Position numbers and translations under genes: made by a program. From positions 1-62,567 of IMG/VR virus record IMGVR_UViG_3300042924_005627: a DNA stretch of 62,567 bases. One strand, given 5' to 3'. Numbering within the stretch: the stretch's first letter is position 1; each line of letters starts with the position of its first letter. Positions 4,706-30,680 of the stretch are shown one piece after another. The notes under the pieces were generated by a model. That model had not been told where the DNA came from and made no database searches. It saw only the letters and a list, made by a program, of their open reading frames with translations. This DNA is from a virus.

Positions 4706-4899
4706 TGATGACTATCTTTGATTTGTTTCATGATGAACGCCGTTATGGTTGGGTTGTAGACAAACGATACGACTGGATTAATATGTTGAATAAAATGCAG
4801 AAAAATAATCCCAGACGATTTAAAGAGTTCCAATACTCACAAGAGACAATTTATCATTACATAGATAGATTAAATCAGGAACAAAATCTAAATGACTGA
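4705..4899 (+). CDS. Unknown protein, 64 aa
   Basis: Charged, aromatic-rich helical protein. It begins with two adjacent ATG codons (4705 and 4708), overlaps the previous stop by one base and runs 8 bases into the radical SAM gene. No motif recognised. Confidence 0.55.
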   Translation: MMTIFDLFHDERRYGWVVDKRYDWINMLNKMQKNNPRRFKEFQYSQETIYHYIDRLNQEQNLND

Positions 4900-5884
4900 A
4901 CTGAAAAATAAAAAAATTATCAGAGTAATCCAAAAAGATGATTCATTAATGAATATGACTTGGATGACTAATAATATATGTAATAATAGATGTTCATATT
5001 GTGTACCAACTTTAAATGCAGGCATAGGTCATCATTATGAATGGGAAAAGGCAAAGAAGTTCCTGGAAGCTTTATTTGAGAGATATCCAAAAATTCATTG
5101 TTCAGTAGCTGGTGGTGAACCAAGTCTTAGTGAATTTTTTCCAGAACTAGTAAAATTTTTTAATGATGCTGGTAATACTATAGGCGTAACTAGTAATGCA
5201 TATAAGTCTGTAGAGTATTGGTCTGACATTTCAAAATATTTAAACTATATTTGTTTCTCTTATCACGCAGAATTTCCTGCAAAAGATTTTAAAGAAAAAG
5301 TAATTGCTGCCAGTCTTAATACGTTTGTAACTGTAAGACTTATGATGCATTCTGTAAAATGGGATCATTGTATGGAAGTTTTTCACTCCTTAAAAGACAT
5401 TGATACTTTTCTCTTGGAACCTGTTAGAATTTTAGATTGGAGTAGTGAAAATAAAGAATCGTTCCAGTATACTCAAGAACAATTGGATTGGTTTCAAAGT
5501 GAAGAAGCTATGAAACCTCATAAAAAAGGATTAGAACATTTAATAGGTTTAGTCAACCCTGTGAATTTAAATTCTTCCTTTCAGTTTGAGGATCAATCTA
5601 TTGTATCTAATCCATATTACAATACTGTAGAATTTATAAATGCTGGTATGACTAATTTTGAAGGATATAGTTGTGAAATAGGATTAAAAAGTTTATTTGT
5701 AAATTCTGCTGGAGAAATTTACTTAGGTAATTGTTTTGTTGGAGGTTCTATAGGAAACATAGAAGATTTTGAAAATATTAAATGGCCAACTAAACCTGTT
5801 ACCTGTGATTTAAACATATGTCGTTGTGCGACGGATGTTAATGTTAGTAAATGGATAAAAAATTATAACGAATACATACAATGA
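4892..5884 (+). CDS. Radical SAM enzyme with C-terminal Cys cluster
   Basis: 330 residues. The signature CX3CX2C lies at Cys30, Cys34 and Cys37 (CNNRCSYC) and would hold the [4Fe-4S] cluster that splits S-adenosylmethionine. GGEPSL (about 74-79) is the usual SAM-binding GGE motif. The C-terminal 60 residues hold six Cys around a GEIYLGNC segment, like the SPASM/twitch auxiliary cluster of peptide- or sugar-modifying members. The substrate is unknown. The nearest partners are tiny unknown genes, one of which could be a peptide substrate (inference). It is coupled to the next gene by an ATGA overlap. Confidence 0.8.
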   Translation: MTELKNKKIIRVIQKDDSLMNMTWMTNNICNNRCSYCVPTLNAGIGHHYEWEKAKKFLEALFERYPKIHCSVAGGEPSLSEFFPELVKFFNDAGNTIGVTSNAYKSVEYWSDISKYLNYICFSYHAEFPAKDFKEKVIAASLNTFVTVRLMMHSVKWDHCMEVFHSLKDIDTFLLEPVRILDWSSENKESFQYTQEQLDWFQSEEAMKPHKKGLEHLIGLVNPVNLNSSFQFEDQSIVSNPYYNTVEFINAGMTNFEGYSCEIGLKSLFVNSAGEIYLGNCFVGGSIGNIEDFENIKWPTKPVTCDLNICRCATDVNVSKWIKNYNEYIQ

Positions 5885-6039
5885 ATTTCACTAGAGAACA
5901 CTATCAATTGATTTACACAGCAGTTAGAAGTCATCAAGACAAATATTATTACGATCGTCAAACCTGGACTCAGTGCAACGAGGTTATTGACGAACTCCAT
6001 AAATTGGTCTATACTCAAAGACAAGAACAACCCACTTGA
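5881..6039 (+). CDS. Unknown protein, 52 aa
   Basis: Small helical protein rich in Tyr and Gln, coupled by ATGA to the radical SAM gene and therefore made with it. No signal or leader-peptide motif is evident. Function unknown. Confidence 0.55.
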   Translation: MNFTREHYQLIYTAVRSHQDKYYYDRQTWTQCNEVIDELHKLVYTQRQEQPT

Positions 6040-6041
6040 TC

Positions 6042-6218
6042 ATGGTTATTTCCACAACTGAAAAGTTCCCTTATCCTTCTTTTCCCTTTCGTCTTGACTT
6101 GACTGAGGGAAAGGATAAACGAGTATGTTGGTTTGAATGTAAAGTCCATGTTGACAAATTCATCCAAAAACATAAACTAAAAAAGAAAGATTATACGTTA
6201 ACCATTAATAATGGCTGA
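6042..6218 (+). CDS. Unknown basic protein, 58 aa
   Basis: Starts at ATG 6042, two bases after the previous stop; an upstream TTG is unlikely. The N-terminus is Pro/Phe-rich and the C-terminus Lys-rich. No family recognised. Confidence 0.6.
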   Translation: MVISTTEKFPYPSFPFRLDLTEGKDKRVCWFECKVHVDKFIQKHKLKKKDYTLTINNG

Positions 6219-6432
6219 ACTAACACTCTTAACTCTTCTGAACTTTGTCGCTACAGATTTTTGTTCCACTCGTATGCGGGGTATGGATACACTCAAATCT
6301 GTTTTAATTGCTTATTCTAAAGCAAACGATAAGTTTGGTGGATCAAATGTACGACGAGTAATTACTAATTCCCCTGGACTTGAAGCTGCAGCAATTGCAA
6401 TTGCTGTAAGTAAATGTCCAGGTCAACTTTGA
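6211..6432 (+). CDS. Unknown protein, 73 aa
   Basis: Mildly hydrophobic helical protein with Leu/Thr-rich first 12 residues and an Ala-rich C-terminal helix. The hydrophobicity seems too low for a firm membrane call. It overlaps the previous gene by 8 bases. Confidence 0.6.
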   Translation: MAELTLLTLLNFVATDFCSTRMRGMDTLKSVLIAYSKANDKFGGSNVRRVITNSPGLEAAAIAIAVSKCPGQL

Positions 6433-6440
6433 GGATAGAC

Positions 6441-6653
6441 ATGCAAGAATTTGAATGGATTGATGATTGTTTTCGAGTAGAAGAACAGAAGTGGGGAACT
6501 TGGAGGTCTTATGACAAAGAGGGAAATGGAATTATCACTTCTCTTCAAAAAGAACTCTGTATTTCTGCGACTCGTTGGTATCTAAAACACAAACAAGAAG
6601 GTTTTGTTGAAAGTGATGTTAAATATGAGGGGGTTGTAGGAGGAAAACTCTGA
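6441..6653 (+). CDS. Unknown acidic protein, 70 aa
   Basis: The ATG at 6441 has a GAGGAT ribosome-binding site 6 bases upstream, overlapping the previous stop. Residues FEWIDDCFRVEEQKWGTW look like a small beta/alpha domain. Function unknown. Confidence 0.6.
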   Translation: MQEFEWIDDCFRVEEQKWGTWRSYDKEGNGIITSLQKELCISATRWYLKHKQEGFVESDVKYEGVVGGKL

Positions 6654-6919
6654 TGTATGTTCCACAGGTTAACGATTATGTTATCTGGAATGATGGAAAG
6701 TGTGTAGAAGGTTGGGTCTATTTTAAAGACGATGAGTATATAACAATCGAAGTTTGCGTAAGACCTAAAGATTGTATAAATTATGAAGCCTGCAACTTAC
6801 ATCGTAATGAAAGACTTCTGGTATTGTGTTATAAAAACCGATGGAAAGAATTAGTGTATGTCAGATCAAGAGAATCCGTATATGAAGAAACAGAAAACAG
6901 TATGGAGATGGTGGGCTAA
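6653..6919 (+). CDS. Unknown beta-rich protein, 88 aa
   Basis: Starts within the previous stop (TGATG). The pattern VNDYVIWNDGKCVEGWVYFKD suggests an SH3-like barrel. Four Cys residues are scattered, not paired as a ribbon. It shares 38 bases with the next gene. Confidence 0.6.
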   Translation: MYVPQVNDYVIWNDGKCVEGWVYFKDDEYITIEVCVRPKDCINYEACNLHRNERLLVLCYKNRWKELVYVRSRESVYEETENSMEMVG

Positions 6920-7115
6920 AGCACTTGGAGAAAAAGCATCTAAGTGCGACCGAGAATCTGATACTGTTGCTCGCATACGCACCTTTATTTTTATTACTTA
7001 CTTGGTCACTAACTGTTTTATTGTGGCTGGAGTAATCAGACACTGGAATGATTCTCCTCCAGTTATTTACATTGAAATTAAACAGGAAGATGGATCACAA
7101 CTCCCAGAAGCCTAG
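6882..7115 (+). CDS. Small membrane protein
   Basis: 77 residues from ATG 6882 (an ATG at 6858 would add 8). It has a basic, Trp-rich start, a transmembrane helix at about residues 36-52, then a periplasmic-type tail ending in acidic residues. It overlaps both neighbours. Confidence 0.55.
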   Translation: MKKQKTVWRWWAKALGEKASKCDRESDTVARIRTFIFITYLVTNCFIVAGVIRHWNDSPPVIYIEIKQEDGSQLPEA

Positions 7116-7242
7116 TCTCGTTTTACCACTGGTCATTGTATTGAGTATTTTATTTATACTTGACATGGCCATCATAGGTGGTATACTTATACATGGAAAG
7201 GCGAACTTTACAGAATTATTTAAACATTTACACCATGGCTAA
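7090..7242 (+). CDS. Small membrane protein, 50 aa
   Basis: ATG 7090 follows an AGGA site. Nearly the whole protein is one hydrophobic helix (about residues 9-31), with a His-rich C-terminus. It follows another single-pass protein, so the two may act together; this is inference. Confidence 0.6.
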   Translation: MDHNSQKPSLVLPLVIVLSILFILDMAIIGGILIHGKANFTELFKHLHHG

Positions 7243-8060: not shown

Positions 8061-8639
8061 ATGGCTACATTGACATCCAGTGGAATAAGATTTGCAACTA
8101 CTCCAGTAGTAGATGAATTAAATTCAAAGAGAGGAATTTTTCCTACTGGAACTGCTTGGGTTTTTTATCAAGCTTCTGCCCCTACTGGGTGGACTAAAGA
8201 TACAAGTTTAACTCTTAATGATAAAGCACTTAGAGTTGTAAGTGGAACTGGTGGTGTTTATGGAGGCACTAATGGTTTCTCGGTAATTATGAATGGATTT
8301 AATGTTGGTGGCGGATCATTAACAAGTTCAGATGCTACAGGAGGAACTCAATTATCAGTTCCACAAATTGCTTCTCACGATCATCCTAGTAGTGGTACTG
8401 GGTTGGATGCAGTTCCAGCAATATTTAATCCTGATGGAGCTTTCACTGGATGGAATGGTGGTGATGTAGCTAGAAGTTCTGGTTGGACTCGAACTTTTCC
8501 TGGGTTTGGAGATGCTGGAACTGCTCCAGTCGGAGACTCTCACTCTCACCCTTTTAGTGCAACTGCACCAGTTCCTATTCAAAACGTGTCTATGCAACCT
8601 ACTTACATGGATGTTATCGTCTGTACTTTTGATGGATAA
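8061..8639 (+). CDS. Fibre-tip/collar-like protein A
   Basis: 192 residues, Gly/Ser/Thr-rich and beta-predicted. FPTGTAWVFYQASAPTGWTK is the phage tail-collar type motif (P.GW). Two His pairs, SHDHP and SHSHPF, resemble the HxH iron-binding motifs at the tip of T4 gp37. It is therefore probably part of a trimeric fibre or adhesin tip. Paralogue of the next gene; both lie behind late-promoter boxes. Its short length suits a tip or minor fibre. Confidence 0.65.
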   Translation: MATLTSSGIRFATTPVVDELNSKRGIFPTGTAWVFYQASAPTGWTKDTSLTLNDKALRVVSGTGGVYGGTNGFSVIMNGFNVGGGSLTSSDATGGTQLSVPQIASHDHPSSGTGLDAVPAIFNPDGAFTGWNGGDVARSSGWTRTFPGFGDAGTAPVGDSHSHPFSATAPVPIQNVSMQPTYMDVIVCTFDG

Positions 8640-8642
8640 ATA
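8635..8642 (+). promoter_or_regulatory. Late promoter box GATAAATA
   Basis: ATAAATA core overlapping the stop of the first fibre-tip gene and 34 bases upstream of the second. The repeated position suggests each paralogue has its own late promoter. Confidence 0.55.
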
Positions 8643-8676
8643 CTTTAAATAACATCTGTAGTTTACATCATATAAA

Positions 8677-9198
8677 ATGGCTAAATTAACAGCGTCGGGA
8701 ATAGTTTTCAGTGATTCTACAATTTTAAATTCAAAATACGGAATTGTTCCACAAAACTCAGTATCAATATTTTATCAAGCCTCTGCCCCTACTGGGTGGA
8801 CTAAAAATATAACTCATAATGACAAAACACTTAGAGTAGTTAATGGAACTGGAGGAGTTTCTGGAGGAACTCAACCATTTACTACTGTGTTTCCCAACTC
8901 TGTTAGAACATTTTCATCTCCGAATATTCCTGTGACGGGAACTGTTGGTAACACTACATTAACAACTGCTCAGTTGCCAAGTCACACACACCCTAACGGT
9001 GGTTCTATTGGATTAAGTCCAGGTGGTGGTGATGTTGCTTTTGGATCTGGATGGACTAGAACTACACCAGCTACAGGTGGTGGTCCAACCTCTGGAGGTG
9101 GATCTCATAGTCACCCTTGGTCTGGTACAGCCCAATGGTCTCTAAATGTAGACCTCAGAATTCAATACATAGATGTTATTCTTTGTAGTTTTGCTTAA
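8677..9198 (+). CDS. Fibre-tip/collar-like protein B
   Basis: 173-residue paralogue of the preceding gene. The FYQASAPTGWTK block is identical, and the His pairs SHTHP and SHSHPW are kept. Central loops differ and are shorter, as expected where receptor-binding surfaces diverge after duplication. Role: probable virion adhesin tip. Confidence 0.65.
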   Translation: MAKLTASGIVFSDSTILNSKYGIVPQNSVSIFYQASAPTGWTKNITHNDKTLRVVNGTGGVSGGTQPFTTVFPNSVRTFSSPNIPVTGTVGNTTLTTAQLPSHTHPNGGSIGLSPGGGDVAFGSGWTRTTPATGGGPTSGGGSHSHPWSGTAQWSLNVDLRIQYIDVILCSFA

Positions 9199-9233: not shown

Positions 9234-9578
9234 ATGAAAAAAAACGAGTCTGGTAATTTTTGCCCACTTATTAAAAAAGATTGTGTAGAACATAAATGTT
9301 CATGGTACACACATGTAAGAGGCATGAATCCAAATACAGGACAAGATGTAGATCATTGGTCATGTGCTGTAACTTGGATGCCCATGTTAACGATTGAAAA
9401 TTCTCAACAACAGAGACAAACTGGTTCTGCTGTAGAGTCATTTAGAAATGAAGTTGTTAAATCCAATGATGAAAATAGACAACTATATATTGATATGATT
9501 CAACAAAATGGTATATTGCCAGTAAATATAACTTCTTTGACAAGTACACACACCTTACCAGAAAATTCAGGAGAATAA
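9234..9578 (+). CDS. Cys-rich N-terminus protein, 114 aa
   Basis: The first 45 residues hold four Cys (CPLIKKDC, HKCSWY, SCAV) plus His/Trp, a pattern that could hold an Fe-S cluster or zinc. The C-terminal half is helical and polar. Similar short proteins occur in many marine T4-like phages, to my recollection, without known function. Confidence 0.6.
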   Translation: MKKNESGNFCPLIKKDCVEHKCSWYTHVRGMNPNTGQDVDHWSCAVTWMPMLTIENSQQQRQTGSAVESFRNEVVKSNDENRQLYIDMIQQNGILPVNITSLTSTHTLPENSGE

Positions 9579-9581
9579 ATC

Positions 9582-10091
9582 ATGAGATTAACGATCATTC
9601 CATCAGACGGTTCCGTTTATATGGATGGATCTGGTTACACTAACATAGATCTAACTTGGATTCCTGAAATTGATGGAAAAAAAGTTCATGCAGTTCAATG
9701 GTCAGGTGACGAAGGTGAAGTTGAGTTTGTTGGACCTGCACAAAATCTGAAGATCAATGATTTGGGTGTATTTGAACAAGCTATTAGTTTGTGGAATGAA
9801 AAGAAGGAAGAAGAAGATGCTTTCCTAAAACAACAATTAGAATTGGAAGAGAGACGTAAGAGAGAAGAAGAAGAACGTCTAAAATCTCAATTTCTTAGCT
9901 TTGATGATTACGATGAAGAATATGGATTGGGTATTGAGGAATTCAATGAACTCGATGAAAAACCATATATTCCACCAACCCCAACACATATTCCTCCTGT
10001 TGAACCACCTCTAGCATATGCAGACGCAAATGAAGAGGATGAGGACGAAGATTTATTCTACGATATTGAGGAACTTCTCAAAGAGATTTGA
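9582..10091 (+). CDS. Unknown protein with coiled coil and acidic tail
   Basis: 169 residues in three parts: a beta domain (1-65, VYMDGSGYTNIDLTWIP), a long Glu/Lys/Arg helix (about 70-105), and a Pro-rich then very acidic tail. A good ribosome-binding site (AGGAG) precedes the ATG. The layout suggests an adaptor or structural role; no family recognised. Confidence 0.6.
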   Translation: MRLTIIPSDGSVYMDGSGYTNIDLTWIPEIDGKKVHAVQWSGDEGEVEFVGPAQNLKINDLGVFEQAISLWNEKKEEEDAFLKQQLELEERRKREEEERLKSQFLSFDDYDEEYGLGIEEFNELDEKPYIPPTPTHIPPVEPPLAYADANEEDEDEDLFYDIEELLKEI

Positions 10092-10115: not shown

Positions 10116-11300
10116 ATGAATAGAAATTTAATTGAAAACAATTATATTGTTCTGCGAAATTTTATTTCAAGAGAAAGATCATTAGATCTTTCTACAGAAT
10201 TTTTAAATCATTGTGAAACAAACAATGTGGATGGAGATTCACAAGCTCCAAATTCATATTCTACTTATAATTATATCTCATTTTTAGAATTACTTTGTGA
10301 AAAAACTCCAGAAATATCTTCCGTAATTGAAGAGACTGTTTTACCTACTTATGTTTATTCAAGAGTATATAAAAATGGAAGTGAACTATCGCCTCATACT
10401 GATAGAGATGCTTGCGAAATATCAGTAACGTTACACTTGAATGGAGATTCTAGTTGGCCTATATGGATAGAAACGCCATCAGGAGAAAAACGTTACGTTG
10501 AATTGAATCCTGGCGATGCTATGATTTATCTCGGTAGAAATGCAACTCATTGGAGAGAACCCTATCAAGGAGATAATTATAGTCAAGTCTTTTTACATTA
10601 TGTAAGAAGTCGTGGAGATTGTTCTTACGCTTACTTTGATAAACTTAATGAGACTACCAAACCAGTAACTGAAAACACTGATATTGAACAATCTATTGTT
10701 GAGACTAAATCGGAAATAAAAACGACTCCTGCAAGAAGTAAAAAGTCTTTAGAAGATTATATCTTCACATTAGATAATGTTGTTCCAAATGAACTCTGCG
10801 ATAGAATCTTAAAAGAATATCGTGATTGTAGTTTTTGGACTCCAACTAGTGTGGGAAATGGAAATGTAAATGACCAAATTAGAAACTGCGATGTCATTAA
10901 TATTTCCGAAAATATAGTAGTTGAGAAAAATTTTGATATTAGAAAGAAAATAGATGAAGACTTTTATGTTTGTGCTTCAAGAGCAATAAATGAGTATAGG
11001 AAATTGTTTCCTGAAGTTGCATCAGATATTGATACTGGATATGGATTACTAAGATATAAGAAAGGTCAGTTTTATATTCAACATACGGACTCATTCCAAC
11101 AACAACAGAGATCTGTAAGTTGTTCTTTTCTATTGAATGATGATTATGAAGGTGGTGAGTTTGCGTTTTTTGATAGAGAAATTATTATAAGTGGTTCAAA
11201 AGGATCTATTGTAATGTTTCCCTCTAATTTTATGTTCCCGCATGAAATTATGCCTGTAACTTCTGGAACTAGATATTCAATTATCACCTGGTATGTCTAA
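10116..11300 (+). CDS. Two-headed 2OG-Fe(II) oxygenase
   Basis: 394 residues with two dioxygenase domains in tandem. Domain 1 (about 1-165) has iron ligands H94, D96 (HTD) and H145 (ATHW). Domain 2 (about 213-394) has H323, D325 (HTD) and H376, with R386 suited to hold 2-oxoglutarate. A Lys/Thr linker joins them. Domain 2 has the prolyl-4-hydroxylase look (GGEFAFFD ... PHEIMPVTSGTRYS). Both are predicted active and would hydroxylate a protein, sugar or other small substrate. It opens the modification island and overlaps the first GT25 gene by 8 bases. Confidence 0.8.
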   Translation: MNRNLIENNYIVLRNFISRERSLDLSTEFLNHCETNNVDGDSQAPNSYSTYNYISFLELLCEKTPEISSVIEETVLPTYVYSRVYKNGSELSPHTDRDACEISVTLHLNGDSSWPIWIETPSGEKRYVELNPGDAMIYLGRNATHWREPYQGDNYSQVFLHYVRSRGDCSYAYFDKLNETTKPVTENTDIEQSIVETKSEIKTTPARSKKSLEDYIFTLDNVVPNELCDRILKEYRDCSFWTPTSVGNGNVNDQIRNCDVINISENIVVEKNFDIRKKIDEDFYVCASRAINEYRKLFPEVASDIDTGYGLLRYKKGQFYIQHTDSFQQQQRSVSCSFLLNDDYEGGEFAFFDREIIISGSKGSIVMFPSNFMFPHEIMPVTSGTRYSIITWYV

Positions 11301-12090
11301 TAAACTTGAAGGGATTCCGAGTATTTACTATCTAAATTTGGACTCCGAATTGGATAGAAGAAAGTACATGGAAAAACAATTTGAGAAATGGAATCTGAGT
11401 AATGTAACAAGATTTTCTGGATCACAATACCTAGCAGAAAATTATGAGGATTGGAAAAGTATTTTACATTTTCCTCACAAAATTACAGAAAAAAAACATC
11501 AATTAGCTGCTTCCATTACTCTTTCTACTCTCGAAATGATTCGACATTGGTTAGAAACTACCAATGAAAAACATTTGATTTTATTTGAAGATGATTATGA
11601 TCTAGACTTAATTGAATACTGGCACTTTGATTGGAAGTATTTGATGAATCATATTCCATATGATTGGGATTGCATTCAGTTAGGATATGAGTCATCTCGT
11701 TTTATTAAATTTTTCCTTCACCCTAAAGATGAAACAAGTGCATATGGACCAATTCTGATTAACAGACATTTTGCTCAAAAGTTAATTAATTTGCATTATG
11801 TCAAAAATAGGTACATGTTAATTCGAAAATACGGAAGCCATCCATATAACACTGGTCACCGAGTTGTTTCACTGGATAGTTTCATTTGTTTTTTGGGGAA
11901 GACATATCAACTTCCTTTAATAACTCAAAATCCACATCTAGATAAAATAGCAAAGAAACATCACTTTCTTTGTAGAGACATGTACTATGAGTGGTGGCAG
12001 AACGAAAGAGATAATTTTTCTTTGGAAGATTTTTTTTCTTATGGGAAAGAAAATGATTATCAAATGACAATAAAAGTAAATTATCAATGA
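11293..12090 (+). CDS. GT25-like glycosyltransferase 1
   Basis: 265 residues of the family 25 type (LPS/LgtA-like and procollagen Gal-transferase-like). An N-terminal IYYLNLDSELDRRKYM strand is the family's 'Iyv.nL..r.dR' start, and LFEDDYDLD is the acidic metal-binding motif. INRHFAQKLI and the C-terminal FFSYGKEND block are shared with the four paralogues. It likely moves a hexose onto a glycan or protein. It overlaps the oxygenase upstream and the next paralogue by 4 bases. Confidence 0.7.
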   Translation: MSNKLEGIPSIYYLNLDSELDRRKYMEKQFEKWNLSNVTRFSGSQYLAENYEDWKSILHFPHKITEKKHQLAASITLSTLEMIRHWLETTNEKHLILFEDDYDLDLIEYWHFDWKYLMNHIPYDWDCIQLGYESSRFIKFFLHPKDETSAYGPILINRHFAQKLINLHYVKNRYMLIRKYGSHPYNTGHRVVSLDSFICFLGKTYQLPLITQNPHLDKIAKKHHFLCRDMYYEWWQNERDNFSLEDFFSYGKENDYQMTIKVNYQ

Positions 12091-12911
12091 CAATTAATTC
12101 TAAGTTGGAAGGTCTGCCTCCAATATATTATTTTAACCTAGAACACAGAGTAGATCGTAGAGAATACTTAGAAAATCAATTTTTGGAATATGGAATAACA
12201 AACTATCAAAGAGTTAATTCTTCCAGATATTCAGTTGATAATTATAAAGATTGGAAGTCTAAAGTTTTAACCGATAAACTTAGAACACAAGTATGGTTTC
12301 TTGCTACTCTAATTGATAGAATTCATGGTATAATTGATTGGTACAATTCTAATATTTCCGAAACTTGTTTAATGGTTGAGGATGATATTTGTATGGACCC
12401 TGTAAATTATTGGGGATTTGATTGGGAGACTTTTGTTAATAATTTGCCTTGTAATTGGGAATGTATCCAACTTCATATTATTGGAGAAAAATTTCTCAGG
12501 ATGAATCTATCTAAGTGGAATAGAAATAATCACTCCACAGGTTGTATACTTATTAATAGATCATATGCACAAAAATTAATTAAACTTCATTACGTAAATA
12601 ATAAGTTTAAATTATATTCTAATTATGGATATAATAAAAATTGGCCAGAATATCATTATCAATCGGTAGATTTTGTTTTATATCAAATAGGAATAACATA
12701 TTCAATTCCTATTTTCACCACTAATTATAATTTTGTGAGTGATGGATACAGAAACGGAAAAATAAATCAAATGTCTAAAAATAGTGATATTTTGGTTTTA
12801 GATTGGTGGAAGAATAAGTCTCGGAATTATACTTTGGATGACATTTTTTACTTGGATTCGTTAAGAAAAAAAGAATTAATCATAGATATAAGTCATGAAT
12901 TTGAAGGATAA
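12087..12911 (+). CDS. GT25-like glycosyltransferase 2
   Basis: 274 residues. PPIYYFNLEHRVDRREYL opens the fold and MVEDDICMD is the metal site. This is the more diverged copy, closest by eye to the separate paralogue at 16648 (both have 'NWYDSNLSET'-like and 'ENWECIQL'-like segments). The C-terminus lacks a clean FFTYGKPND box. Coupled on both sides by short overlaps, 17 bases with the next gene. Confidence 0.7.
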   Translation: MTINSKLEGLPPIYYFNLEHRVDRREYLENQFLEYGITNYQRVNSSRYSVDNYKDWKSKVLTDKLRTQVWFLATLIDRIHGIIDWYNSNISETCLMVEDDICMDPVNYWGFDWETFVNNLPCNWECIQLHIIGEKFLRMNLSKWNRNNHSTGCILINRSYAQKLIKLHYVNNKFKLYSNYGYNKNWPEYHYQSVDFVLYQIGITYSIPIFTTNYNFVSDGYRNGKINQMSKNSDILVLDWWKNKSRNYTLDDIFYLDSLRKKELIIDISHEFEG

Positions 12912-13764
12912 GTTACGGGGACTTCCTCCCATTATTTTGGCTACAATTGACGAACGAAAAGATAGACAGGAATATACTGAAACTCAATATGATTATTGGG
13001 GTATAAAAAATTATACAAAAGTGTCCGGATCCAAGTATCAACTTTCAACATATGAAGATTACTGGAAAGATCTTGTTATTTTAAATCCATTTCCTGAAGA
13101 TTATATAAGAAAAAATCACCACATTGCAGAAATTTCTATAACTCTTGCTCATTTAATAAACATTAAAAATTGGTTAGAGACTAGTAACGATCCATACGTT
13201 ATCATTATGGAAGATGACTACGATCTAAGTTTTATTGAGTACTGGCATTTTGATTGGGAATATCTGATGAATAGTCTCCCATATGATTGGGATTGTATTC
13301 AGATGAGTTTTGAGAATGAGGAAGAAATTCCCTGTTTTTTACATCCAATTCTACCTAAACATGATAGTGGTGGTTCTTTGATTAATAGAAGATATGCAGA
13401 GAAAATTATAAGTCTTCACTATAAAGACGGTAAATTCGATCTCTCTCAAAAAATTTCTAACTATAAATGGTCAAGTAAAGGCATAACCTTTTATGAAGGA
13501 TTGGGGATGCCAAATTTTACTACAGATTATTTTCTTGGCCATAATGGAAAAACATATTGTATACCCTTGTTTTCAGTAAACCAAAATCTGGGTAGTTGGG
13601 CTCAAAATATTTCTAGAAAAGAAGAAAGGACAGATCTATCATTTTCTTATAAAGCGTATAAGAAATGGTGGACTAAACTTAGAGATGAGTATACCCTGAA
13701 AGAGTTCTTTACTTATGGCAAACCGAATGATAGAATAATTGTATCGGGAGAAATAGATATATGA
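12895..13764 (+). CDS. GT25-like glycosyltransferase 3
   Basis: 289 residues. The metal site is IMEDDYDLS. It shares long identical runs with the next gene (YDYWGIKNYTKVSGSKYQ; RRYAEKIISLHYKD; FTYGKPNDRI), so the two arose by a recent duplication. The start is set by the short overlap with the previous gene. The acceptor and donor sugars are unknown. Confidence 0.7.
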   Translation: MNLKDKLRGLPPIILATIDERKDRQEYTETQYDYWGIKNYTKVSGSKYQLSTYEDYWKDLVILNPFPEDYIRKNHHIAEISITLAHLINIKNWLETSNDPYVIIMEDDYDLSFIEYWHFDWEYLMNSLPYDWDCIQMSFENEEEIPCFLHPILPKHDSGGSLINRRYAEKIISLHYKDGKFDLSQKISNYKWSSKGITFYEGLGMPNFTTDYFLGHNGKTYCIPLFSVNQNLGSWAQNISRKEERTDLSFSYKAYKKWWTKLRDEYTLKEFFTYGKPNDRIIVSGEIDI

Positions 13765-14612
13765 ATTTGGGCAATAAGTTAAAGGATCTTCCTCATATTA
13801 TGATGTTAACTCTCGATGAAAGAGAGGATAGACAACAGTACGCAGAAATACAGTATGATTATTGGGGTATAAAAAATTATACAAAAGTTTCTGGATCAAA
13901 ATACCAATTTTCTACTTATGAAGATTGGAAACATATGGTTAAGTTAAATCCATTTTCAGGAGCCCTCGAAAAAAAGAAGAGACATATTACTGATACTAGT
14001 ATCGCTCTGTCATATCTACTAATAATAAAAAATTGGTTAGAAACGACAAATGAGAAATACTTGATTTTAATGGAGGATGACTATGATTTATTCTTCATTG
14101 AATACTGGCATTTTGATTGGAACTACTTGATGAATAATATCCCATACGATTGGGATTGCATTCAAATGAGTTTCGAAAATCCCAATCTAATTCCTTGTTT
14201 CTTACATCCAATTTTACCTGCTCATGGTGTAGGTGGTTGTATGATTAATAGAAGATATGCAGAGAAAATAATATCCTTACACTATAAGGATGATAAGTTT
14301 GATTTGTCACAAAAGATTTGTAATTATAATTGGTCTGAAATAGAAAGTACAAACCCCAATTTTACTGTGGATTATTTTTTGTGTCATAATGGAAAAACTT
14401 ATTCAATTCCTTTATTTTCTATAAATCAACGTTTTGGTAGTTATGCTGAAAATATTTGTAGAAAAGAGGAAAGATCTGATTTAGAATTTTCGTATAAAGC
14501 TTGTAAAAAGTGGTGGACTGAACTTAGAGATCAATATACTTTAGATGATTTCTTTACCTATGGTAAACCAAATGATAGAATAATTACACCCGAGGAATTT
14601 CAAAATGTTTGA
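13761..14612 (+). CDS. GT25-like glycosyltransferase 4
   Basis: 283 residues, near-twin of copy 3, with LMEDDYDLF as metal site. Differences concentrate around residues 68-80 and 195-210, which could set the acceptor. ATGA coupling upstream and 8-base overlap with the aminotransferase-like gene downstream place it firmly in one operon. Confidence 0.7.
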   Translation: MNLGNKLKDLPHIMMLTLDEREDRQQYAEIQYDYWGIKNYTKVSGSKYQFSTYEDWKHMVKLNPFSGALEKKKRHITDTSIALSYLLIIKNWLETTNEKYLILMEDDYDLFFIEYWHFDWNYLMNNIPYDWDCIQMSFENPNLIPCFLHPILPAHGVGGCMINRRYAEKIISLHYKDDKFDLSQKICNYNWSEIESTNPNFTVDYFLCHNGKTYSIPLFSINQRFGSYAENICRKEERSDLEFSYKACKKWWTELRDQYTLDDFFTYGKPNDRIITPEEFQNV

Positions 14613-15192
14613 GCATGTTAGTCAATTTGAATCTGAAATTGCAGAGTTTTTTGGAGCTCCTTATGCAGTAGCTACAGATTCGTGTACTCATGCATTAGAA
14701 CTTTGTTTGAGGCATACTCACGAAGATTACCTTACAATTCCTACAAGGACTTACATTTCAGTTCCAATGACTTGTATGAAACTTGGTCTAACTTGGGGTT
14801 GGAGAGAAGAAGAGTGGTCCGATTATTACTACCTAGGATTTACAAATATTATTGATGCTGCCGTTCTTTGGGGTGAAAACACATATATTCCAGGAACATA
14901 TATGTGTTTAAGTTTTCAATATAAGAAACACCTAAACCTTGGACGAGGTGGTGCAATCTTGTTGCAAAACAAAGAAGATTATGATACACTTAAAAAAATG
15001 TCTTATGATGGTCGTGATCCTAGTCGTCCATGGGCTGAACAGGACATAGATACTATTGGGTATCATTATTACATGACTCCAGAGATGGCGAAAACGGGAA
15101 TTGAATTACTAAATGAGCGGAAAAAAATTCCCGGTAAAAAATGGAGCCATAGGAATTACCCAGACTTGAGAGAGATGTCTGTATTCAAATGA
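14605..15192 (+). CDS. Very short DegT/DnrJ/StrS-type aminotransferase homologue
   Basis: 195 residues against about 370-400 for the family. Kept are the N-terminal substrate loop (ATDSCTHALELCL), an IIDAAV segment (the family's D.A..H/Q), and SFQYKKHLNLGRGGAI with the PLP-binding Lys at K108. The C-terminal small domain is almost absent, replaced by about 70 residues (DGRDPSRPW ... MTPEMAKTGIELL) that still match the family's 'G.N.rm....A' area. It would transaminate a keto-sugar if active. The ends are clean overlaps, so this looks like a compact form rather than a broken gene. Confidence 0.65.
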   Translation: MFEHVSQFESEIAEFFGAPYAVATDSCTHALELCLRHTHEDYLTIPTRTYISVPMTCMKLGLTWGWREEEWSDYYYLGFTNIIDAAVLWGENTYIPGTYMCLSFQYKKHLNLGRGGAILLQNKEDYDTLKKMSYDGRDPSRPWAEQDIDTIGYHYYMTPEMAKTGIELLNERKKIPGKKWSHRNYPDLREMSVFK

Positions 15193-15689
15193 TTAATCAC
15201 ATAAAACCTAATTGGAACGTTGAAGATTTTTATAATCTTGATTATGTTTTATCGACTCATAAAGATACTGATTTGGTAAATCAATATCTGAGTTCTGGTC
15301 ATAGTAAAGATAAATTGTCTATGTACAAGTATCATTTACCAAATCCTATGCCAAAATGTGTGGACGAGTATATTATTCCTAAGTTTTGTTTTTTGGATAA
15401 AGTAGCTGCTGCAGTTAATTACTTTAAACCTGGACAATATTTACCTCTTCATACAGATCTTTTTGGTAAGTATATAGAGTTAAATGATATTGGGTCTGAA
15501 AATGTAATAAGATGTATGGTAATGTTGGAAGATAGTTCTCCAGGACAAATTTTGCAAGTTAAAGATACCGCATATTGTAAGTGGAAAGCCGGACATTGTT
15601 TTTACTGGGATTATGATGAAATACATGCGTTTTATAATTTTAGTATGAAAGATAGGTATGCAATTCAAATCACTGGGGTTAAGAAATGA
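15189..15689 (+). CDS. Aspartyl-hydroxylase-like 2OG-Fe(II) oxygenase
   Basis: 166 residues. LPLHTD gives iron ligands H88 and D90; EIHAFYN gives H146; R156 could bind 2-oxoglutarate. The spacing and the C-terminal cupin strands (WKAGHCFYWDYDEIHAFYNFS) fit small Asp/Asn beta-hydroxylase-like enzymes. It lies between the aminotransferase homologue and the amidinotransferase with 4-base overlaps, so it should act in the same route. Confidence 0.75.
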   Translation: MINHIKPNWNVEDFYNLDYVLSTHKDTDLVNQYLSSGHSKDKLSMYKYHLPNPMPKCVDEYIIPKFCFLDKVAAAVNYFKPGQYLPLHTDLFGKYIELNDIGSENVIRCMVMLEDSSPGQILQVKDTAYCKWKAGHCFYWDYDEIHAFYNFSMKDRYAIQITGVKK

Positions 15690-16648
15690 AAAGTCAGAAT
15701 GAATGGGATAGACTCAAAAAAGTAATCGTAGGTGTTGCAGACTATGCAAGAGTCCCTGAAGTAGATTTGAGTGTTCGCACTATTAATTATGCGGACAGAA
15801 AAGATGTTTCTGATGTTCCAGTTGGGCCATATCCCCAACAAGTTATTGATGAATCAAATGAAGACTTGGAGACTTTTGTTAAGTTTCTGTTGGAAGAAGG
15901 TGTAGAAGTTGTAAGGTCAGAAAGGAGTCCAACAGAGTATTACAATTTTTGTCCAAGAGATGTAATCTTTACTCATAAAGACCTGACTGTTGCAACTCCA
16001 ATGCCATTGGAGTGTAGAAAAGATGCATGGAAACCTTTGCTTGATCCTTTGGGTACTACTATCATTGTTCCATGCAAACACAAAGAAGAACTTTATAACG
16101 AAAATTGTGTAGGAGACAAGGATACTCTTGCACTTACAGAGGTTACTCCCGCATTTGATGCAGCAAATATCATTCGTGCAAATGATGATGTTTTGTACCT
16201 TGTGTCTAACAGTGGAAATGTTGCAGGGGCTAACATACTTCAAGAAATGCTTCGGGGTCGTGCAAAAGTTCATCTGCTTCAAGGCGTTTATAGTTATATG
16301 CACATTGATACCACGATTGCATTTCTTCGTGAAGGTTTGATGTTATTGAATCCCGAAAGAATTAAGTCTGTAGATGTTCTTCCAGAACCCTTTAGAAACT
16401 GGGATGTAATTTGGTGTCCAGAACCTGTAGATATTGGTTATTTTCCAGGTTATAATCATTCATCTGAATGGATTAATATGAATCTTTTCAGTGTAAGTCC
16501 GAATCTAGTTGCTTTGGAACAACATCAAGATCCAACTAGAAAAGAGTTAGAAAAGTATGGAATAGAATGTGCCATGCTTCCTATGAGACACGCAAGAACA
16601 TTGAGTGGTTGTTTTCATTGTGTTACATTAGATCTTGAAAGAGAATAG
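15686..16648 (+). CDS. Amidinotransferase (AGAT/StrB family)
   Basis: 320 residues. The catalytic triad of glycine/inosamine amidinotransferases is complete: D158 in FDAANIIRA, H206 in MHIDTT, C312 in SGCFHCVTL. The family moves an amidino group from arginine to an amine (glycine, lysine or an aminocyclitol), giving ornithine and a guanidino product. Placed next to an aminotransferase homologue and glycosyltransferases, a guanidino-sugar role as in streptomycin-type pathways is plausible, but glycine or another amine cannot be excluded. Length is near normal for StrB/AGAT. Confidence 0.85.
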   Translation: MKSQNEWDRLKKVIVGVADYARVPEVDLSVRTINYADRKDVSDVPVGPYPQQVIDESNEDLETFVKFLLEEGVEVVRSERSPTEYYNFCPRDVIFTHKDLTVATPMPLECRKDAWKPLLDPLGTTIIVPCKHKEELYNENCVGDKDTLALTEVTPAFDAANIIRANDDVLYLVSNSGNVAGANILQEMLRGRAKVHLLQGVYSYMHIDTTIAFLREGLMLLNPERIKSVDVLPEPFRNWDVIWCPEPVDIGYFPGYNHSSEWINMNLFSVSPNLVALEQHQDPTRKELEKYGIECAMLPMRHARTLSGCFHCVTLDLERE

Positions 16649-17505
16649 TGGACTTAGAGAATAAACTCAAAGGTTTTCCTCCCATTTACTACATCAATCT
16701 CCTTCATAGGACTGATAGAAAAAACTGGATGGAATCCCAATTTAATAATTGGGGAATAACGGATCATCATAGGATTAATGCTTCAAAGTATGACATTTCC
16801 AAATATGATGAATGGAAAGATATAATTGTAGAAAATCAAATTCTCGAATGTTTGTCTGCAATGTCAACAGCATTAAATCATATAGAAACAATTATTAATT
16901 GGTATGATAGTAATCTATCCGAAACTTGCATTATAATGGAGGATGATTTATCAATACAGAATATAAAATATTGGAATTTTGATTGGACATACTTTGAGAA
17001 TAATCTACCAGAAAACTGGGAGTGTATTCAACTCTATTTTTGTAGTACATATCACTCAAATGGTCTATTTGTACCAATGTTTTTACACAGGAGATCTGAT
17101 GCTGGATCTGCAGCTGCGTATTTGATAAATCGCACATATGCCAAAAAAGTTAAAAACTTGATGTATCGTGATGGTAAATATAGATTAACATTTGCAGATA
17201 ATTCCTTTCATAAGAGACATAGTAAAACACATATAACAGGAGACTCTAATTTATTTGATATTGGAATTACATATTCAATTCCTCTTTTCAATCTTAATGT
17301 CAATATGAATGGGGATAGTGAGCAGAATAATAATAAAATGTTTCCCATAGATATAATTTGCAGTCGATTAATAGAAGATTGGTGGAAAAATCATCATCAT
17401 AAATTTCCATTGGAAGATTTTTTTACTTATGGTAAACCAAATGATCTAAAAATGACCATGAAGGTAAAAATGGAAGACATAACAAAATTTCTAGAAAAAT
17501 GTTAA
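16648..17505 (+). CDS. GT25-like glycosyltransferase 5
   Basis: 285 residues, starting with GTG overlapping the amidinotransferase stop (TAGTG). PPIYYINLLHRTDRKNWM opens the fold, IMEDDLSIQ is the metal site, and FFTYGKPNDL closes it. It is separated from the other four copies by three enzyme genes, so the copies are not a simple uninterrupted tandem array. Confidence 0.7.
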   Translation: MDLENKLKGFPPIYYINLLHRTDRKNWMESQFNNWGITDHHRINASKYDISKYDEWKDIIVENQILECLSAMSTALNHIETIINWYDSNLSETCIIMEDDLSIQNIKYWNFDWTYFENNLPENWECIQLYFCSTYHSNGLFVPMFLHRRSDAGSAAAYLINRTYAKKVKNLMYRDGKYRLTFADNSFHKRHSKTHITGDSNLFDIGITYSIPLFNLNVNMNGDSEQNNNKMFPIDIICSRLIEDWWKNHHHKFPLEDFFTYGKPNDLKMTMKVKMEDITKFLEKC

Positions 17506-19079
17506 TACTTAGTGTTCATTTAGGACATGACTCTTCAATATGTGTCCTAAACAATGGAAATTTAGAACAATATTTCTTAGTAGAAAGATATACAAGAAAA
17601 AAACATGATGACAACCAATCAACAATATTGGTGTTATTAAATGATATTTGTAGTAAACTAACTGAACCGTTAGATGTCATTAGTATATCTAATTTTAATA
17701 CTAAAGATGCGATAATATTAGAAATTTTTGAAGAATGCAGAAAATATAATTCAAATGTAAAACTAATATTGCAACAGGAACATCATTTAAATCATGCTTC
17801 TCTCGCTTTTTATAATAGTGGGTTCGATAAGAGTCTTGTTGTTGTCGTTGACGGAGCTGGATCAACAATTAACGATAATTTGGTAGAAGTGGAAAGTGTT
17901 TTTCTTTTTGATCAGGAAAAAAACACCTTAATTTATAAGAATATCATAGAAGATTCAAATCCATTTGATCTTTTCTGGGAAGATTCTACTTTTGGGGTCG
18001 GTAAATTATATGATATTGCTGCAATTTTAATTGGAAATACCCCTGATGATTGTGGAAAGGTAATGGGACTTTCATCATATGGATCTCCAAATCAATTATT
18101 TAAAAATTTATTCTTAGAAAAGAATATCTTTAATACTCATTTTTTTAAAAACTCTTCTCAAGAGATTAAACAATTTTTGAAAACTCCGATTAGAAAAATA
18201 GATAGTGAAAACTATAAATTACATGCAGATTTTTGTTATGAAGTTCAACATCAAACGCAAAAAGTAGTTGGAGATATAATAGAAGATTCAATAATAAAAA
18301 CAGGGATTAAGAAAGTCTGTATCTCTGGTGGATATGGTATGAACATCGTTGCGAACTATTATTATTTGCAACGATTTCCTGATGTAGAATTTTATTTTGA
18401 ACCATTGTGTAATGATAATGGAATAAGTATAGGTGCTGCGATGAATTCATATTTTCAATTAACCAATAAAATTCCCAATCCTCTCCAAACAACCTCCTTT
18501 CATGGATCTACTCATGAAATTTCTTTGTATAAAGGTAAAACAACATCAATAGAAACCATTGTTAATCTACTAAATCAAAATAAATCTATTGCTGTGTATA
18601 GTGGTCTCGCAGAAGCTGGTCAAAGAGCACTTGGGAATCGTTCTATATTTTTTAATCCATTAAATTTAAATGCAAAAGATATTGTAAATAAAATCAAAAA
18701 AAGAGAGTGGTATCGTCCTTTTGCTTGTGTGGTATTGGAAGAGGATGTTAATGTTTATTTTGATATGGGGAATGTAAAATCAAGTCGGTTTATGACTACA
18801 TGTTTCCCAGTAAGACGAGAGTGTGTTAAAATAATGCCAGGAATAACCCATGTAGATAATACATGTAGAGTTCAAACTGTTTCCAAAACGGATGGTTACT
18901 TGTATAAACTTTTACAAGAATTTAAAAAATTGTCTGGACATGGTATTCTTTTGAATACTAGTTTTAATTTAGCTGGAGAACCTTTAGTAGAGACTCCAAC
19001 GGATGCATTGAATACTCTAAATAATTCGTCTTTAGATTATCTTTGGTTTGAAGAAACACAACAATTACTTAGTAGATAA
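17499..19079 (+). CDS. Carbamoyltransferase (NodU/TobZ family)
   Basis: 526 residues. The N-terminal Kae1-like domain has LGHDSS (residues 8-13) and the metal-binding HHLNHA (95-100; family form HHxxHA), then DGAG and CISGGYGMN nucleotide loops. The C-terminal YrdC-like domain has RALGNRS and REWYRPFA (family form RPFAP). The family carbamoylates hydroxyls of sugars or antibiotics using carbamoyl phosphate and ATP. It ends the island; its product would be an O-carbamoyl glycan. It is somewhat shorter than the usual 560-620 residues. Confidence 0.85.
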   Translation: MLILSVHLGHDSSICVLNNGNLEQYFLVERYTRKKHDDNQSTILVLLNDICSKLTEPLDVISISNFNTKDAIILEIFEECRKYNSNVKLILQQEHHLNHASLAFYNSGFDKSLVVVVDGAGSTINDNLVEVESVFLFDQEKNTLIYKNIIEDSNPFDLFWEDSTFGVGKLYDIAAILIGNTPDDCGKVMGLSSYGSPNQLFKNLFLEKNIFNTHFFKNSSQEIKQFLKTPIRKIDSENYKLHADFCYEVQHQTQKVVGDIIEDSIIKTGIKKVCISGGYGMNIVANYYYLQRFPDVEFYFEPLCNDNGISIGAAMNSYFQLTNKIPNPLQTTSFHGSTHEISLYKGKTTSIETIVNLLNQNKSIAVYSGLAEAGQRALGNRSIFFNPLNLNAKDIVNKIKKREWYRPFACVVLEEDVNVYFDMGNVKSSRFMTTCFPVRRECVKIMPGITHVDNTCRVQTVSKTDGYLYKLLQEFKKLSGHGILLNTSFNLAGEPLVETPTDALNTLNNSSLDYLWFEETQQLLSR

Positions 19080-27012: not shown

Positions 27013-27864
27013 ATGTCCGTTTCAATAATAACTGCATGTAAAAACAGATCTAAAGCTTTGGCTGTATCTATGGCTTCATGGATGCAGTTTGATGAGGTTG
27101 ATGAAATACTAGTAACTAATTGGAATTCGGATGAATCTATAGATCATCTGACAGTTTTAAGTGAAAAGGTAAAAATAATTAATGTGAAAAATGAATCACA
27201 TTTTAATCAACCTCAACCATTAAATTTAGCATCGTCTTTAGTTAAGAGTGAATATCTATTAAAGTTGGATTGTGATCATATATTAAATCCATATTTCAAC
27301 TTTTTTCATTTTCATAAAATTGATGAAAATTCTTTTATATCCGGATCCAACAAATTACTGACTGGAATGGATTTTGATTTTTTACATCCACTCTGGGGTT
27401 TGTTGTATGTAAAAACCGAGATCTTTAAAAAACTTGGTGGATATAATGAAAATATGGGCAAGTATTATGCAGTAGAGGACGATGAGTTGGCGGTAAGGTT
27501 AATATCATATGGACTTAATCCAATATTGATAGACGCCCAGAAATTATCAGCCTTACATATTCCACATTCAGATAAAGATAGAGTTAAAAATTTTCAATCG
27601 TTTGACAGTATTAGTCAAATTTTGAGTGAATTTGGAAAAGATTTTGTAGGAGATGATCTTTACACTTATATGGCAAAATTGTGTAAAGAAAAAAATCATA
27701 ATGTATATCCTATATCCGCAAGAATGATGGAAATACTTGATTTGGAAGAGAAAAATGAGTACAGTGAAATAATCGACGTAAACGTTGAGTGGTATTCAGA
27801 ACCAATCTACAAATGGAAAGTTACCCAAGTAAATGATCAAATATATGAAGCTGTTAAAATATGA
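27013..27864 (+). CDS. GT2-type glycosyltransferase A
   Basis: 283 residues with a GT-A fold: SIITACKNRSKAL nucleotide-binding strand, NQPQPLNLASSL, then LDCDH as the DXD metal site (about 89-93), and LGGYNENM ... VEDDE with the catalytic-base-type acidic pair. It would transfer a sugar from a nucleotide donor. AT-rich, with an ATGA overlap to its paralogue. Confidence 0.8.
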   Translation: MSVSIITACKNRSKALAVSMASWMQFDEVDEILVTNWNSDESIDHLTVLSEKVKIINVKNESHFNQPQPLNLASSLVKSEYLLKLDCDHILNPYFNFFHFHKIDENSFISGSNKLLTGMDFDFLHPLWGLLYVKTEIFKKLGGYNENMGKYYAVEDDELAVRLISYGLNPILIDAQKLSALHIPHSDKDRVKNFQSFDSISQILSEFGKDFVGDDLYTYMAKLCKEKNHNVYPISARMMEILDLEEKNEYSEIIDVNVEWYSEPIYKWKVTQVNDQIYEAVKI

Positions 27865-30433: not shown

Positions 30434-30680
30434 AGATGTAAATTCACTCATTAAAGAAAAATTTCTCTGTCAGTCTAAGTTCGCACAAGACATTGAACAT
30501 CTTGTGATGAGTTCAAAAATTAATTATATTGAAGCCATTGTCACTTATTGTGAAGAGAATGGTATTGAATTTGAATCTGTTTCAAAACTCATTTCAAAAC
30601 CATTGAAAGAGAAATTAAAACACGAGGCAACTCAACTTAACTTCCTAAAGAAAACAAGTCGTGCTAAACTAGTATTCTGA
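30417..30680 (+). CDS. 33: Late promoter transcription accessory protein gp33
   Basis: 87 residues from ATG 30417, small and helical with a central NYIEAIVTYCEENGIEFESV block and a basic C-terminus (KPLKEKLKHEATQLNFL). This matches the gp33 type of cyanomyoviruses, and the order gp33-gp59-gp32 agrees with T4. gp33 bridges RNA polymerase and the gp45 clamp for late transcription, which uses boxes like those at 8022 and 37849. Confidence 0.75.
   Translation: MQNNTEDVNSLIKEKFLCQSKFAQDIEHLVMSSKINYIEAIVTYCEENGIEFESVSKLISKPLKEKLKHEATQLNFLKKTSRAKLVF

What the first reader, a model, noticed from the sequence alone, without database searches (positions are those of the whole stretch)
10116..19079. 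Phage-borne island that may build an amino/guanidino/carbamoyl glycan
Nine kilobases of coupled genes combine a two-headed 2OG oxygenase, five GT25-like glycosyltransferases, a DegT-type aminotransferase homologue, an Asp-hydroxylase-like oxygenase, an AGAT/StrB amidinotransferase with a complete catalytic triad, and a NodU/TobZ carbamoyltransferase. Amino transfer, amidination and carbamoylation together are the chemistry of aminoglycoside-type sugars. That a cyanophage encodes them in one operon suggests it makes an unusual decoration on its virion, on DNA, or on the host surface. The families are seen; the joint pathway and product are inference.
Basis: partly seen in the sequence, partly recalled or inferred. 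Interest (0 to 1): 0.9.

Follow-up and report, generated by a model that had tools for sequence, protein, structure and literature searches.

The report
Phage cassette for guanidino-sugar glycans
A virus of marine cyanobacteria carries a conserved set of enzymes that probably converts a sugar hydroxyl to an amine and then to an arginine-like guanidino group, most likely as decoration on its own tail fibres; this chemistry was known mainly from antibiotics such as streptomycin.

Summary
Ten overlapping genes (10116-19079, + strand) encode a 2OG oxygenase with two intact heads, five GT25-like glycosyltransferases with EDD motifs, a DegT-family protein, an AspH-like oxygenase, a StrB-like amidinotransferase and a NodU/TobZ-like carbamoyltransferase.

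Of 80 viral contigs found through the amidinotransferase, 49 of the 51 with long flanks have the DegT gene within 5 kb and 48 have AspH. The carbamoyltransferase is confined mostly to close relatives.

The DegT protein is half-size (about 195 aa) everywhere. It keeps the PLP lysine and aspartate but lacks a middle segment and the whole C-terminal domain. The complete relative S-SCSM2R encodes no full-size DegT.

The amidinotransferase is closest to streptomycin's StrB. In most cyanophage-type relatives the island follows tail-fibre genes, and its glycosyltransferase profile matches only mimivirus R655, a collagen-glycosyltransferase homologue. No thymidylate-synthase-family or TET/JBP gene passes its cut-off in complete S-SCSM2R.

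Best reading: oxidise, aminate, amidinate a sugar in an O-glycan on tail fibres. The guanidino-sugar step is probable, the tail-fibre target moderately likely, the product unproven. New variant of a known kind.

The parts
8061..8639 (+). tail-fibre/collar-type protein A (possible glycan acceptor)
   Evidence: 50% identical to collar-type protein B in alignment A5 and 33% to S-SCSM2R SSCSM2R_232; family profile hits PDB tail fibre proteins
8677..9198 (+). tail-fibre/collar-type protein B (possible glycan acceptor)
   Evidence: profile A5 hits PDB 9qgo tail fibre E 7.9e-8; S-SCSM1 homologue labelled 'tail fiber protein (virion protein)'
9234..9578 (+). conserved small protein 'up2' that follows tail-fibre genes
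   Evidence: homologues next to fibre genes in S-B43, P-SSM2, S-SCSM1
9582..10091 (+). conserved spacer protein 'up1'
   Evidence: present between up2 and the 2OG gene in relatives
10116..11300 (+). two-headed 2OG-Fe(II) oxygenase; proposed peptidyl hydroxylase creating the glycosylation site
   Evidence: PF13640 and PHROGs; both HxD..H sets conserved in 40 sequences
11293..12090 (+). GT25-like glycosyltransferase a (EDD at 99)
   Evidence: phrog_2835 E 4.4e-34; EDD
12087..12911 (+). GT25-like glycosyltransferase b (EDD at 98)
   Evidence: phrog_2835 E 3e-37; EDD
12895..13764 (+). GT25-like glycosyltransferase c (EDD at 106)
   Evidence: phrog_2835 E 1.8e-39; family profile hits PDB 9crz mimivirus R655
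13761..14612 (+). GT25-like glycosyltransferase d (EDD at 105), 70% identical to c (recent duplication)
14605..15192 (+). half-size DegT-family protein (mini-DegT), proposed sugar aminotransferase
   Evidence: PF01041 59.6 bits in two blocks; K108, D84, T28 invariant; AF2 pLDDT 95 and best PDB matches sugar aminotransferases
15189..15689 (+). AspH-like 2OG oxygenase; proposed oxidation of the sugar hydroxyl before amination (inferred)
   Evidence: PF05118 just above cut-off; H88 D90 H146 R156 invariant; beside mini-DegT/AmT in most loci
15686..16648 (+). StrB-like amidinotransferase (AmT)
   Evidence: 1BWD E 4e-57, profile E 3.5e-76; triad and Arg-binding residues invariant
16648..17505 (+). 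GT25-like glycosyltransferase e (EDD at 98, GTG start)
   Evidence: phrog_2835 E 8.7e-40
17499..19079 (+). NodU/TobZ-type O-carbamoyltransferase (accessory)
   Evidence: PF16861 + PF02543; H95, H99, D118, D306 conserved; PDB TobZ/GdmN matches

Best explanation
The island is a glycan-modification operon of a T4-like cyanophage. Its conserved core (AspH-like oxygenase, half-size DegT, StrB-like amidinotransferase) most likely turns a sugar carbon bearing a hydroxyl into a guanidino group. Steps: the oxygenase, or in other loci a radical-SAM enzyme or nucleotide-sugar dehydratase, makes a ketone; mini-DegT transaminates it; the amidinotransferase moves the amidino group from arginine to that amine. 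The two-headed 2OG oxygenase and the GT25-like enzymes build the glycan, most likely on hydroxylated residues of the tail-fibre proteins encoded just upstream (8061-9198). The carbamoyltransferase caps a hydroxyl in some lineages. Shown: gene set, intact catalytic residues, co-conservation, reduced DegT architecture, tail-fibre neighbourhood. Inferred: reaction order, sugar acceptor, AspH as alcohol oxidase, tail-fibre target. My odds: a guanidino-sugar is made 0.6; it sits on virion protein 0.5; whole statement 0.4.
For: Core co-conservation: 49/51 AmT loci with long flanks have mini-DegT within 5 kb, 48/51 AspH; co-inheritance (Mantel r 0.77 and 0.81, null maxima 0.24 and 0.30). The trio persists where the other neighbours differ (L075, L081, L153). 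AmT closest to StrB, catalytic set invariant. Mini-DegT model closest to GDP-perosamine synthase, ArnB and BtrR among PDB entries. Loci without AmT put mini-DegT beside WbuC-type cupins (22/37) and GMD-like SDRs (19/37); L033 has AmT-DegT-2OG-WbuC-GMD in a row. Protein target: order tail fibre-up2-2OG in 63 of 65 loci holding these genes, kept in P-SSM2 (fibre-up2-up1-PiuC) and S-SCSM1 (seven 2OG genes round two fibre genes); the fibre-family profile matches solved tail fibres; the GT profile matches only mimivirus R655, a GLT25D1-like collagen-GT homologue (PMC9546862). DNA target disfavoured.
Against: No activity or product is known for any gene here. Mini-DegT lacks a net 40 or so residues of the middle and the whole C-terminal domain, so it may not be a transaminase. 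AspH-like fold matches are weak (TM about 0.5: prolyl hydroxylases, cupins, AspH), and alcohol-to-ketone oxidation is inference. The same mini-DegT occurs in bacterial and phage clusters that look like surface-polysaccharide loci, and S-SCSM2R has other surface-glycan-type clusters, so host-surface modification is possible. The amidino acceptor could be a peptide amine rather than a sugar.
Confidence: 0.4

Rival explanations
1. The same guanidino-sugar chemistry, but the product goes onto the host's LPS or exopolysaccharide to change the infected cell's surface (superinfection exclusion, grazing), as proposed for other cyanophage sugar clusters.
For: Mini-DegT without AmT sits in cupin-methyltransferase-DegT-SDR cassettes in phages and in bacterial MAGs/SAGs. 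S-SCSM2R and the 138-kb relative of the window carry a separate epimerase/GT10/GT11/UGDH cluster. PMC9602691 reads such genes as cell-wall modification.
Against: No nucleotide-sugar gene was recognised in the island itself, and it follows tail-fibre genes in most relatives. Other cyanophages place 2OG oxygenases at the same spot beside fibres without any sugar genes.
Confidence: 0.25
2. The enzymes modify amino-acid side chains of a phage protein directly (hydroxylation, oxidation, amination and amidination, e.g. making an arginine-like residue), with the glycosyltransferases acting separately.
For: Two protein-hydroxylase-like oxygenases; radical-SAM proteins near AmT in 27/80 loci; Campylobacter phages pair a distant AmT with five radical-SAM genes (PMC2853527).
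Against: Mini-DegT's structural relatives among the top 50 PDB hits are nearly all sugar or cyclitol aminotransferases, and without AmT its neighbours are sugar enzymes.
Confidence: 0.15
3. Mini-DegT is a decayed, non-enzymatic remnant or binding protein, and the island makes only a glycosylated or carbamoylated product.
For: C-terminal domain and a middle segment missing.
Against: Length and PLP residues are constant in 132 divergent homologues, confident fold, conserved beside an intact AmT.
Confidence: 0.1
4. The pathway makes a diffusible guanidino small molecule or cyclitol (antibiotic- or creatine-like).
For: AmT is nearest to StrB of streptomycin; phage records label such genes glycine or inosamine amidinotransferase.
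Against: No PF01408 or PF01761 gene in complete S-SCSM2R and five relatives; operon dominated by glycosyltransferases and next to virion genes; AmT is far closer to StrB than to glycine AmT.
Confidence: 0.07
5. The glycan is put on phage DNA (hypermodified bases).
For: Phage glycosyltransferases, 2OG oxygenases and carbamoyltransferases can act on DNA in other phages (own knowledge).
Against: No thymidylate-synthase-superfamily (dCMP/dUMP hydroxymethylase) gene and no TET/JBP match above cut-off in complete S-SCSM2R or relatives.
Confidence: 0.03

Closest known systems
Synechococcus phage S-SCSM2R island (PQ898602, genes 301-310)
   Same: Two-headed 2OG, GTs, 195-aa DegT, AspH-like 2OG, amidinotransferase (70% identical) in one run
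   Different: Has a radical-SAM gene and a GT2, fewer GT25-like genes; carbamoyltransferase lies elsewhere, beside other tail-protein genes; annotated piecemeal in the record
Streptidine branch of streptomycin biosynthesis (StsC/StrB1)
   Same: DegT-family transamination followed by arginine-dependent amidination; AmT closest to StrB1, same catalytic residues
   Different: No cyclitol enzymes found; DegT is half-size; embedded among glycosyltransferases of a phage
Mimivirus collagen hydroxylation/glycosylation (L230, R655, R699; PMC9546862)
   Same: Virus-encoded 2OG hydroxylase plus GT25/GLT25D-like enzymes acting on a structural protein; R655 is the only PDB match of the GT profile
   Different: No collagen-like repeats found in this window; adds amino/amidino/carbamoyl chemistry
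Campylobacter phages CP220/CPt10 exchangeable module (PMC2853527)
   Same: Phage cluster with an amidinotransferase, sugar-transferase-like genes and oxidising enzymes
   Different: AmT only 25% identical, five radical-SAM genes, no DegT or 2OG gene annotated in the stretch
Cyanophage LPS/AMG clusters with Nol-like carbamoyltransferase
   Same: phrog_1601 carbamoyltransferase widespread in cyanophages
   Different: Usually without the DegT-AspH-AmT core

Membership tests
StrB/AGAT amidinotransferases | Asp-His-Cys catalytic triad and Arg-binding residues | tested here: met
   D158, H206, D208, C312, R111, D92 invariant in 20 relatives, aligned to StrB1
StrB/AGAT amidinotransferases | closer to inosamine-phosphate than to glycine amidinotransferase | tested here: met
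   1BWD 259.7 bits against 149 for AGAT and 138 for SxtG
StrB/AGAT amidinotransferases | acceptor is an aminocyclitol or aminosugar | not testable with these tools
   needs enzyme assay
DegT/DnrJ/EryC1/StrS aminotransferases | PLP lysine and N1-binding aspartate in the conserved motifs | tested here: met
   K108 and D84 invariant
DegT/DnrJ/EryC1/StrS aminotransferases | two-domain fold of about 360 residues | tested here: not met
   195 aa; profile 24-86 and 163-239 only, in the window and six relatives
Glycosyltransferase family 25 | Pfam PF01755 above curated cut-off | tested here: not met
   17-18.5 bits for two copies, none for three; cut-off 24
Glycosyltransferase family 25 | acidic EDD/DxD-type motif and relation to GLT25D-like enzymes | tested here: met
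   EDD in all five; profile hit to R655 E 1.2e-4 over 95 residues
Asp/Asn beta-hydroxylase family | HxD...H iron site and 2OG-binding Arg | tested here: met
   H88, D90, H146, R156 invariant
Asp/Asn beta-hydroxylase family | clear family score and fold match to AspH | tested here: inconclusive
   23.3 bits against cut-off 22.6; AspH only rank 15 or lower, TM about 0.5
NodU/TobZ carbamoyltransferases | Kae1-like and YrdC-like domains with metal ligands | tested here: met
   PF02543 and PF16861; H95, H99, D118, D306 conserved
Aminoglycoside/streptidine pathway | cyclitol-forming or cyclitol-oxidising enzymes | tested here: not met
   no PF01408 or PF01761 in S-SCSM2R (complete) or five relatives
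Phage DNA hypermodification by glycosylated bases | hydroxymethylase or TET/JBP enzyme | tested here: not met
   PF00303 none; Tet_JBP only 15.6 bits, below cut-off, elsewhere in S-SCSM2R
Viral protein hydroxylation-glycosylation | glycan present on a virion protein | not testable with these tools
   needs glycoproteomics of virions

The most novel reading that the evidence does not exclude
Cyanophages decorate their tail fibres with O-glycans bearing guanidino sugars, that is arginine-like cationic sugars built by oxidation, transamination and amidination, using a previously unrecognised minimal PLP enzyme half the size of a DegT aminotransferase. The module is swapped among marine phages at a hotspot next to receptor-binding genes.
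Probability: 0.3. Interest if true: 0.85.

Novelty: new variant of a known kind. Interest (0 to 1): 0.63.

Why it matters
Guanidino sugars are, to my knowledge, hardly known outside antibiotics. A phage-encoded route would add a new class of virion or cell-surface chemistry in abundant ocean viruses, could explain how phage receptor-binding proteins are tuned or shielded, and gives a testable role to some of the many unexplained 2OG oxygenases of cyanophages. The half-size DegT protein, constant in length across more than a hundred homologues, asks directly what the smallest working fold-type-I PLP enzyme is. It also cautions against annotating phage amidinotransferases simply as glycine amidinotransferases.

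Tried and rejected
Near-identical DNA in the phage collection: none. Collagen-like Gly-X-Y repeats as hydroxylation targets: none in the window, few in loci. Truncation artefact for the 195-aa DegT: rejected; same length in S-SCSM2R and in 130 or more homologues. A full-size DegT partner elsewhere in the genome: none in S-SCSM2R or large relatives. wcaG or other regulatory RNA in the window: only tRNAs. Promoter-like and terminator-like sites: not above chance. AspH structure search to settle its substrate: uninformative; profile search of AspH against PDB sequences: no hit. Literature on this cassette: searches found no description. The ocean AMG paper's 'creatine' signal concerns GAMT, not the amidinotransferase, so I did not use it as evidence. 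Apparent bacterial AmT locus L100 ('Chloroflexi' MAG) reads as a phage-like contig.
Full report
What is there. The window is a 62,567-base virus record. Baseplate, tail-lysozyme and tail-fibre proteins match PHROG families, and the nearest named relative is the Synechococcus phage S-SCSM2R. Positions 10116-19079 hold ten + strand genes, each overlapping the next by 1-17 nt, with no promoter-like or terminator-like excess. Upstream are two tail-fibre-type genes and two small conserved genes; downstream is a conserved gene at 19231 found at the same place in many relatives.

Gene identities. The 10116 protein has two oxygenase heads, both with intact iron ligands in 40 homologues. The five glycosyltransferases all match phrog_2835, each carries EDD, and two are 70% identical. 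Pfam's GT25 model does not reach its cut-off, but a profile of the family finds one solved structure, mimivirus R655, described as GLT25D1-like among collagen-modifying enzymes (PMC9546862). The 15686 protein is a StrB-type amidinotransferase: 1BWD scores 259.7 bits against 149 for AGAT, with catalytic and arginine-binding residues invariant. The 17499 protein is a two-domain carbamoyltransferase with its metal ligands. The 15189 protein keeps HxD...H and Arg but is only weakly placed in the AspH family.

The half-size DegT. The 14605 protein is 195 residues. It aligns to DegT positions 24-86 and 163-239 of the 360-position model, so a segment in the middle (a net loss of about 40 residues) and the whole C-terminal part are missing. 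This is no truncation artefact. S-SCSM2R has the same 195-residue protein, 132 homologues of 185-235 residues keep K108, D84, T28 and most of the GYHYYMTPE motif, and the AlphaFold model has mean pLDDT 95. The best structural matches are GDP-perosamine synthase, ArnB, AtS13/CalS13, BtrR and other sugar or cyclitol aminotransferases, covering the query at TM about 0.7 and the targets at about 0.38. No full-size DegT protein is encoded in S-SCSM2R or in six other records, the window included.

What travels together. A scan with the amidinotransferase found 216 viral stretches; the best 80 were kept. Mini-DegT lies within 5 kb in 73 of 80 and AspH in 69; among the 51 loci with long flanks the counts are 49 and 48. 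GTs are near in 67, the two-headed oxygenase in 44, a radical-SAM protein in 27, the carbamoyltransferase in 31. DegT and AmT are on the same strand in all 115 loci with both (some contigs counted twice). Distances among DegT, AmT and AspH are correlated (r 0.77, 0.81, 0.67; null maxima 0.24-0.30). In contexts where the other genes differ (L075, L081, L153, L181) the trio remains close together. The converse does not hold: mini-DegT is more widespread (at least 590 viral stretches), and without AmT it sits with WbuC-type cupins (22/37) and GMD-like SDRs (19/37), also in marine bacterial contigs. The tree needs at least four changes of AmT association on well-supported branches, so the amidination step has been gained or lost repeatedly, apparently on top of an amino-sugar step. 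Locus L033 is the clearest: AmT, mini-DegT, a 'sporadic carbohydrate cluster' 2OG oxygenase, a WbuC-like cupin and a GDP-mannose 4,6-dehydratase-like protein (379 bits, equivalog cut-off 415) in a row.

Where the product goes. In 63 of 65 loci that hold all of these genes, one to three tail-fibre-type genes precede up2 and the two-headed oxygenase. The fibre family's profile matches two solved phage tail fibres, and its S-SCSM1 member is recorded as a virion protein (virion proteome in PMC9602691). In P-SSM2 the same spot reads fibre, up2, up1, PiuC-type 2OG oxygenase, fibre; in S-SCSM1 seven 2OG oxygenases flank two fibre genes with no glycosyltransferase. A hydroxylase-type enzyme beside fibre genes is therefore the constant, and the sugar chemistry is variable cargo. 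That, and the R655 match, is why I prefer protein O-glycosylation on hydroxylated residues; it is inference. Against DNA: no thymidylate-synthase-superfamily or TET/JBP enzyme above cut-off in complete S-SCSM2R or relatives. Against a cyclitol or antibiotic: no PF01408 or PF01761 protein. Host-surface modification is the strongest rival, since S-SCSM2R also has separate epimerase/UGDH/GT10/GT11 and KdsA/KdsB clusters, the first of which is shared by the window's 138-kb relative.

Mechanism. Proposed order: ketone formation (AspH-like oxygenase here; radical SAM or dehydratase plus cupin elsewhere), transamination by mini-DegT, amidination from arginine by AmT, with GT25-like enzymes extending the glycan and the carbamoyltransferase capping it in the window's lineage. 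Only the presence, integrity and co-inheritance of the enzymes are shown.

Limits. Counts come from the best-scoring matches to short peptide patterns, many contigs are fragments, some contigs appear in two searches, SDR types were told apart only by best BLAST match, and no biochemistry exists for any member.

Noticed in passing
L193 (PQ898602.1) 30354-31247: S-SCSM2R encodes a second, very divergent amidinotransferase (297 aa, 21% to the window's) beside KdsA, KdsB and 2OG oxygenases, suggesting another amidinated sugar, possibly Kdo-related.
   Followed up: partly
L188 (MK867354.2) 5972-7237: S-SCSM1 'short tail fiber protein' contains a long Arg/Pro/Phe-rich repeat (FRQPRNFRQPR...) inside a collar-type protein, flanked by seven 2OG oxygenases.
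   Followed up: no
L167 7513-9345 and L173: AspH-like oxygenase fused to a further, apparently glycosyltransferase-like region (611 and 573 aa proteins).
   Followed up: no
L100 (PAAV01000010.1): A contig binned as Chloroflexi MAG looks like a phage and carries AmT, mini-DegT, carbamoyltransferase, a B12-type radical-SAM protein and a tryptophan-halogenase-like gene.
   Followed up: partly
window 4892-5884: Radical-SAM protein upstream of the tail-fibre genes, conserved at the same place in many relatives; may belong to the same pathway.
   Followed up: partly
window 27013-28715: Two tandem GT2/Glyco_transf_7C-like glycosyltransferases homologous to the GT2 inside the S-SCSM2R island.
   Followed up: no
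L138-L183 and L083-L106: A recurring cassette cupin(WbuC)-methyltransferase-mini-DegT-SDR in phages and marine bacterial contigs (Neomarinimicrobiota, Alphaproteobacteria, Prochlorococcus).
   Followed up: partly
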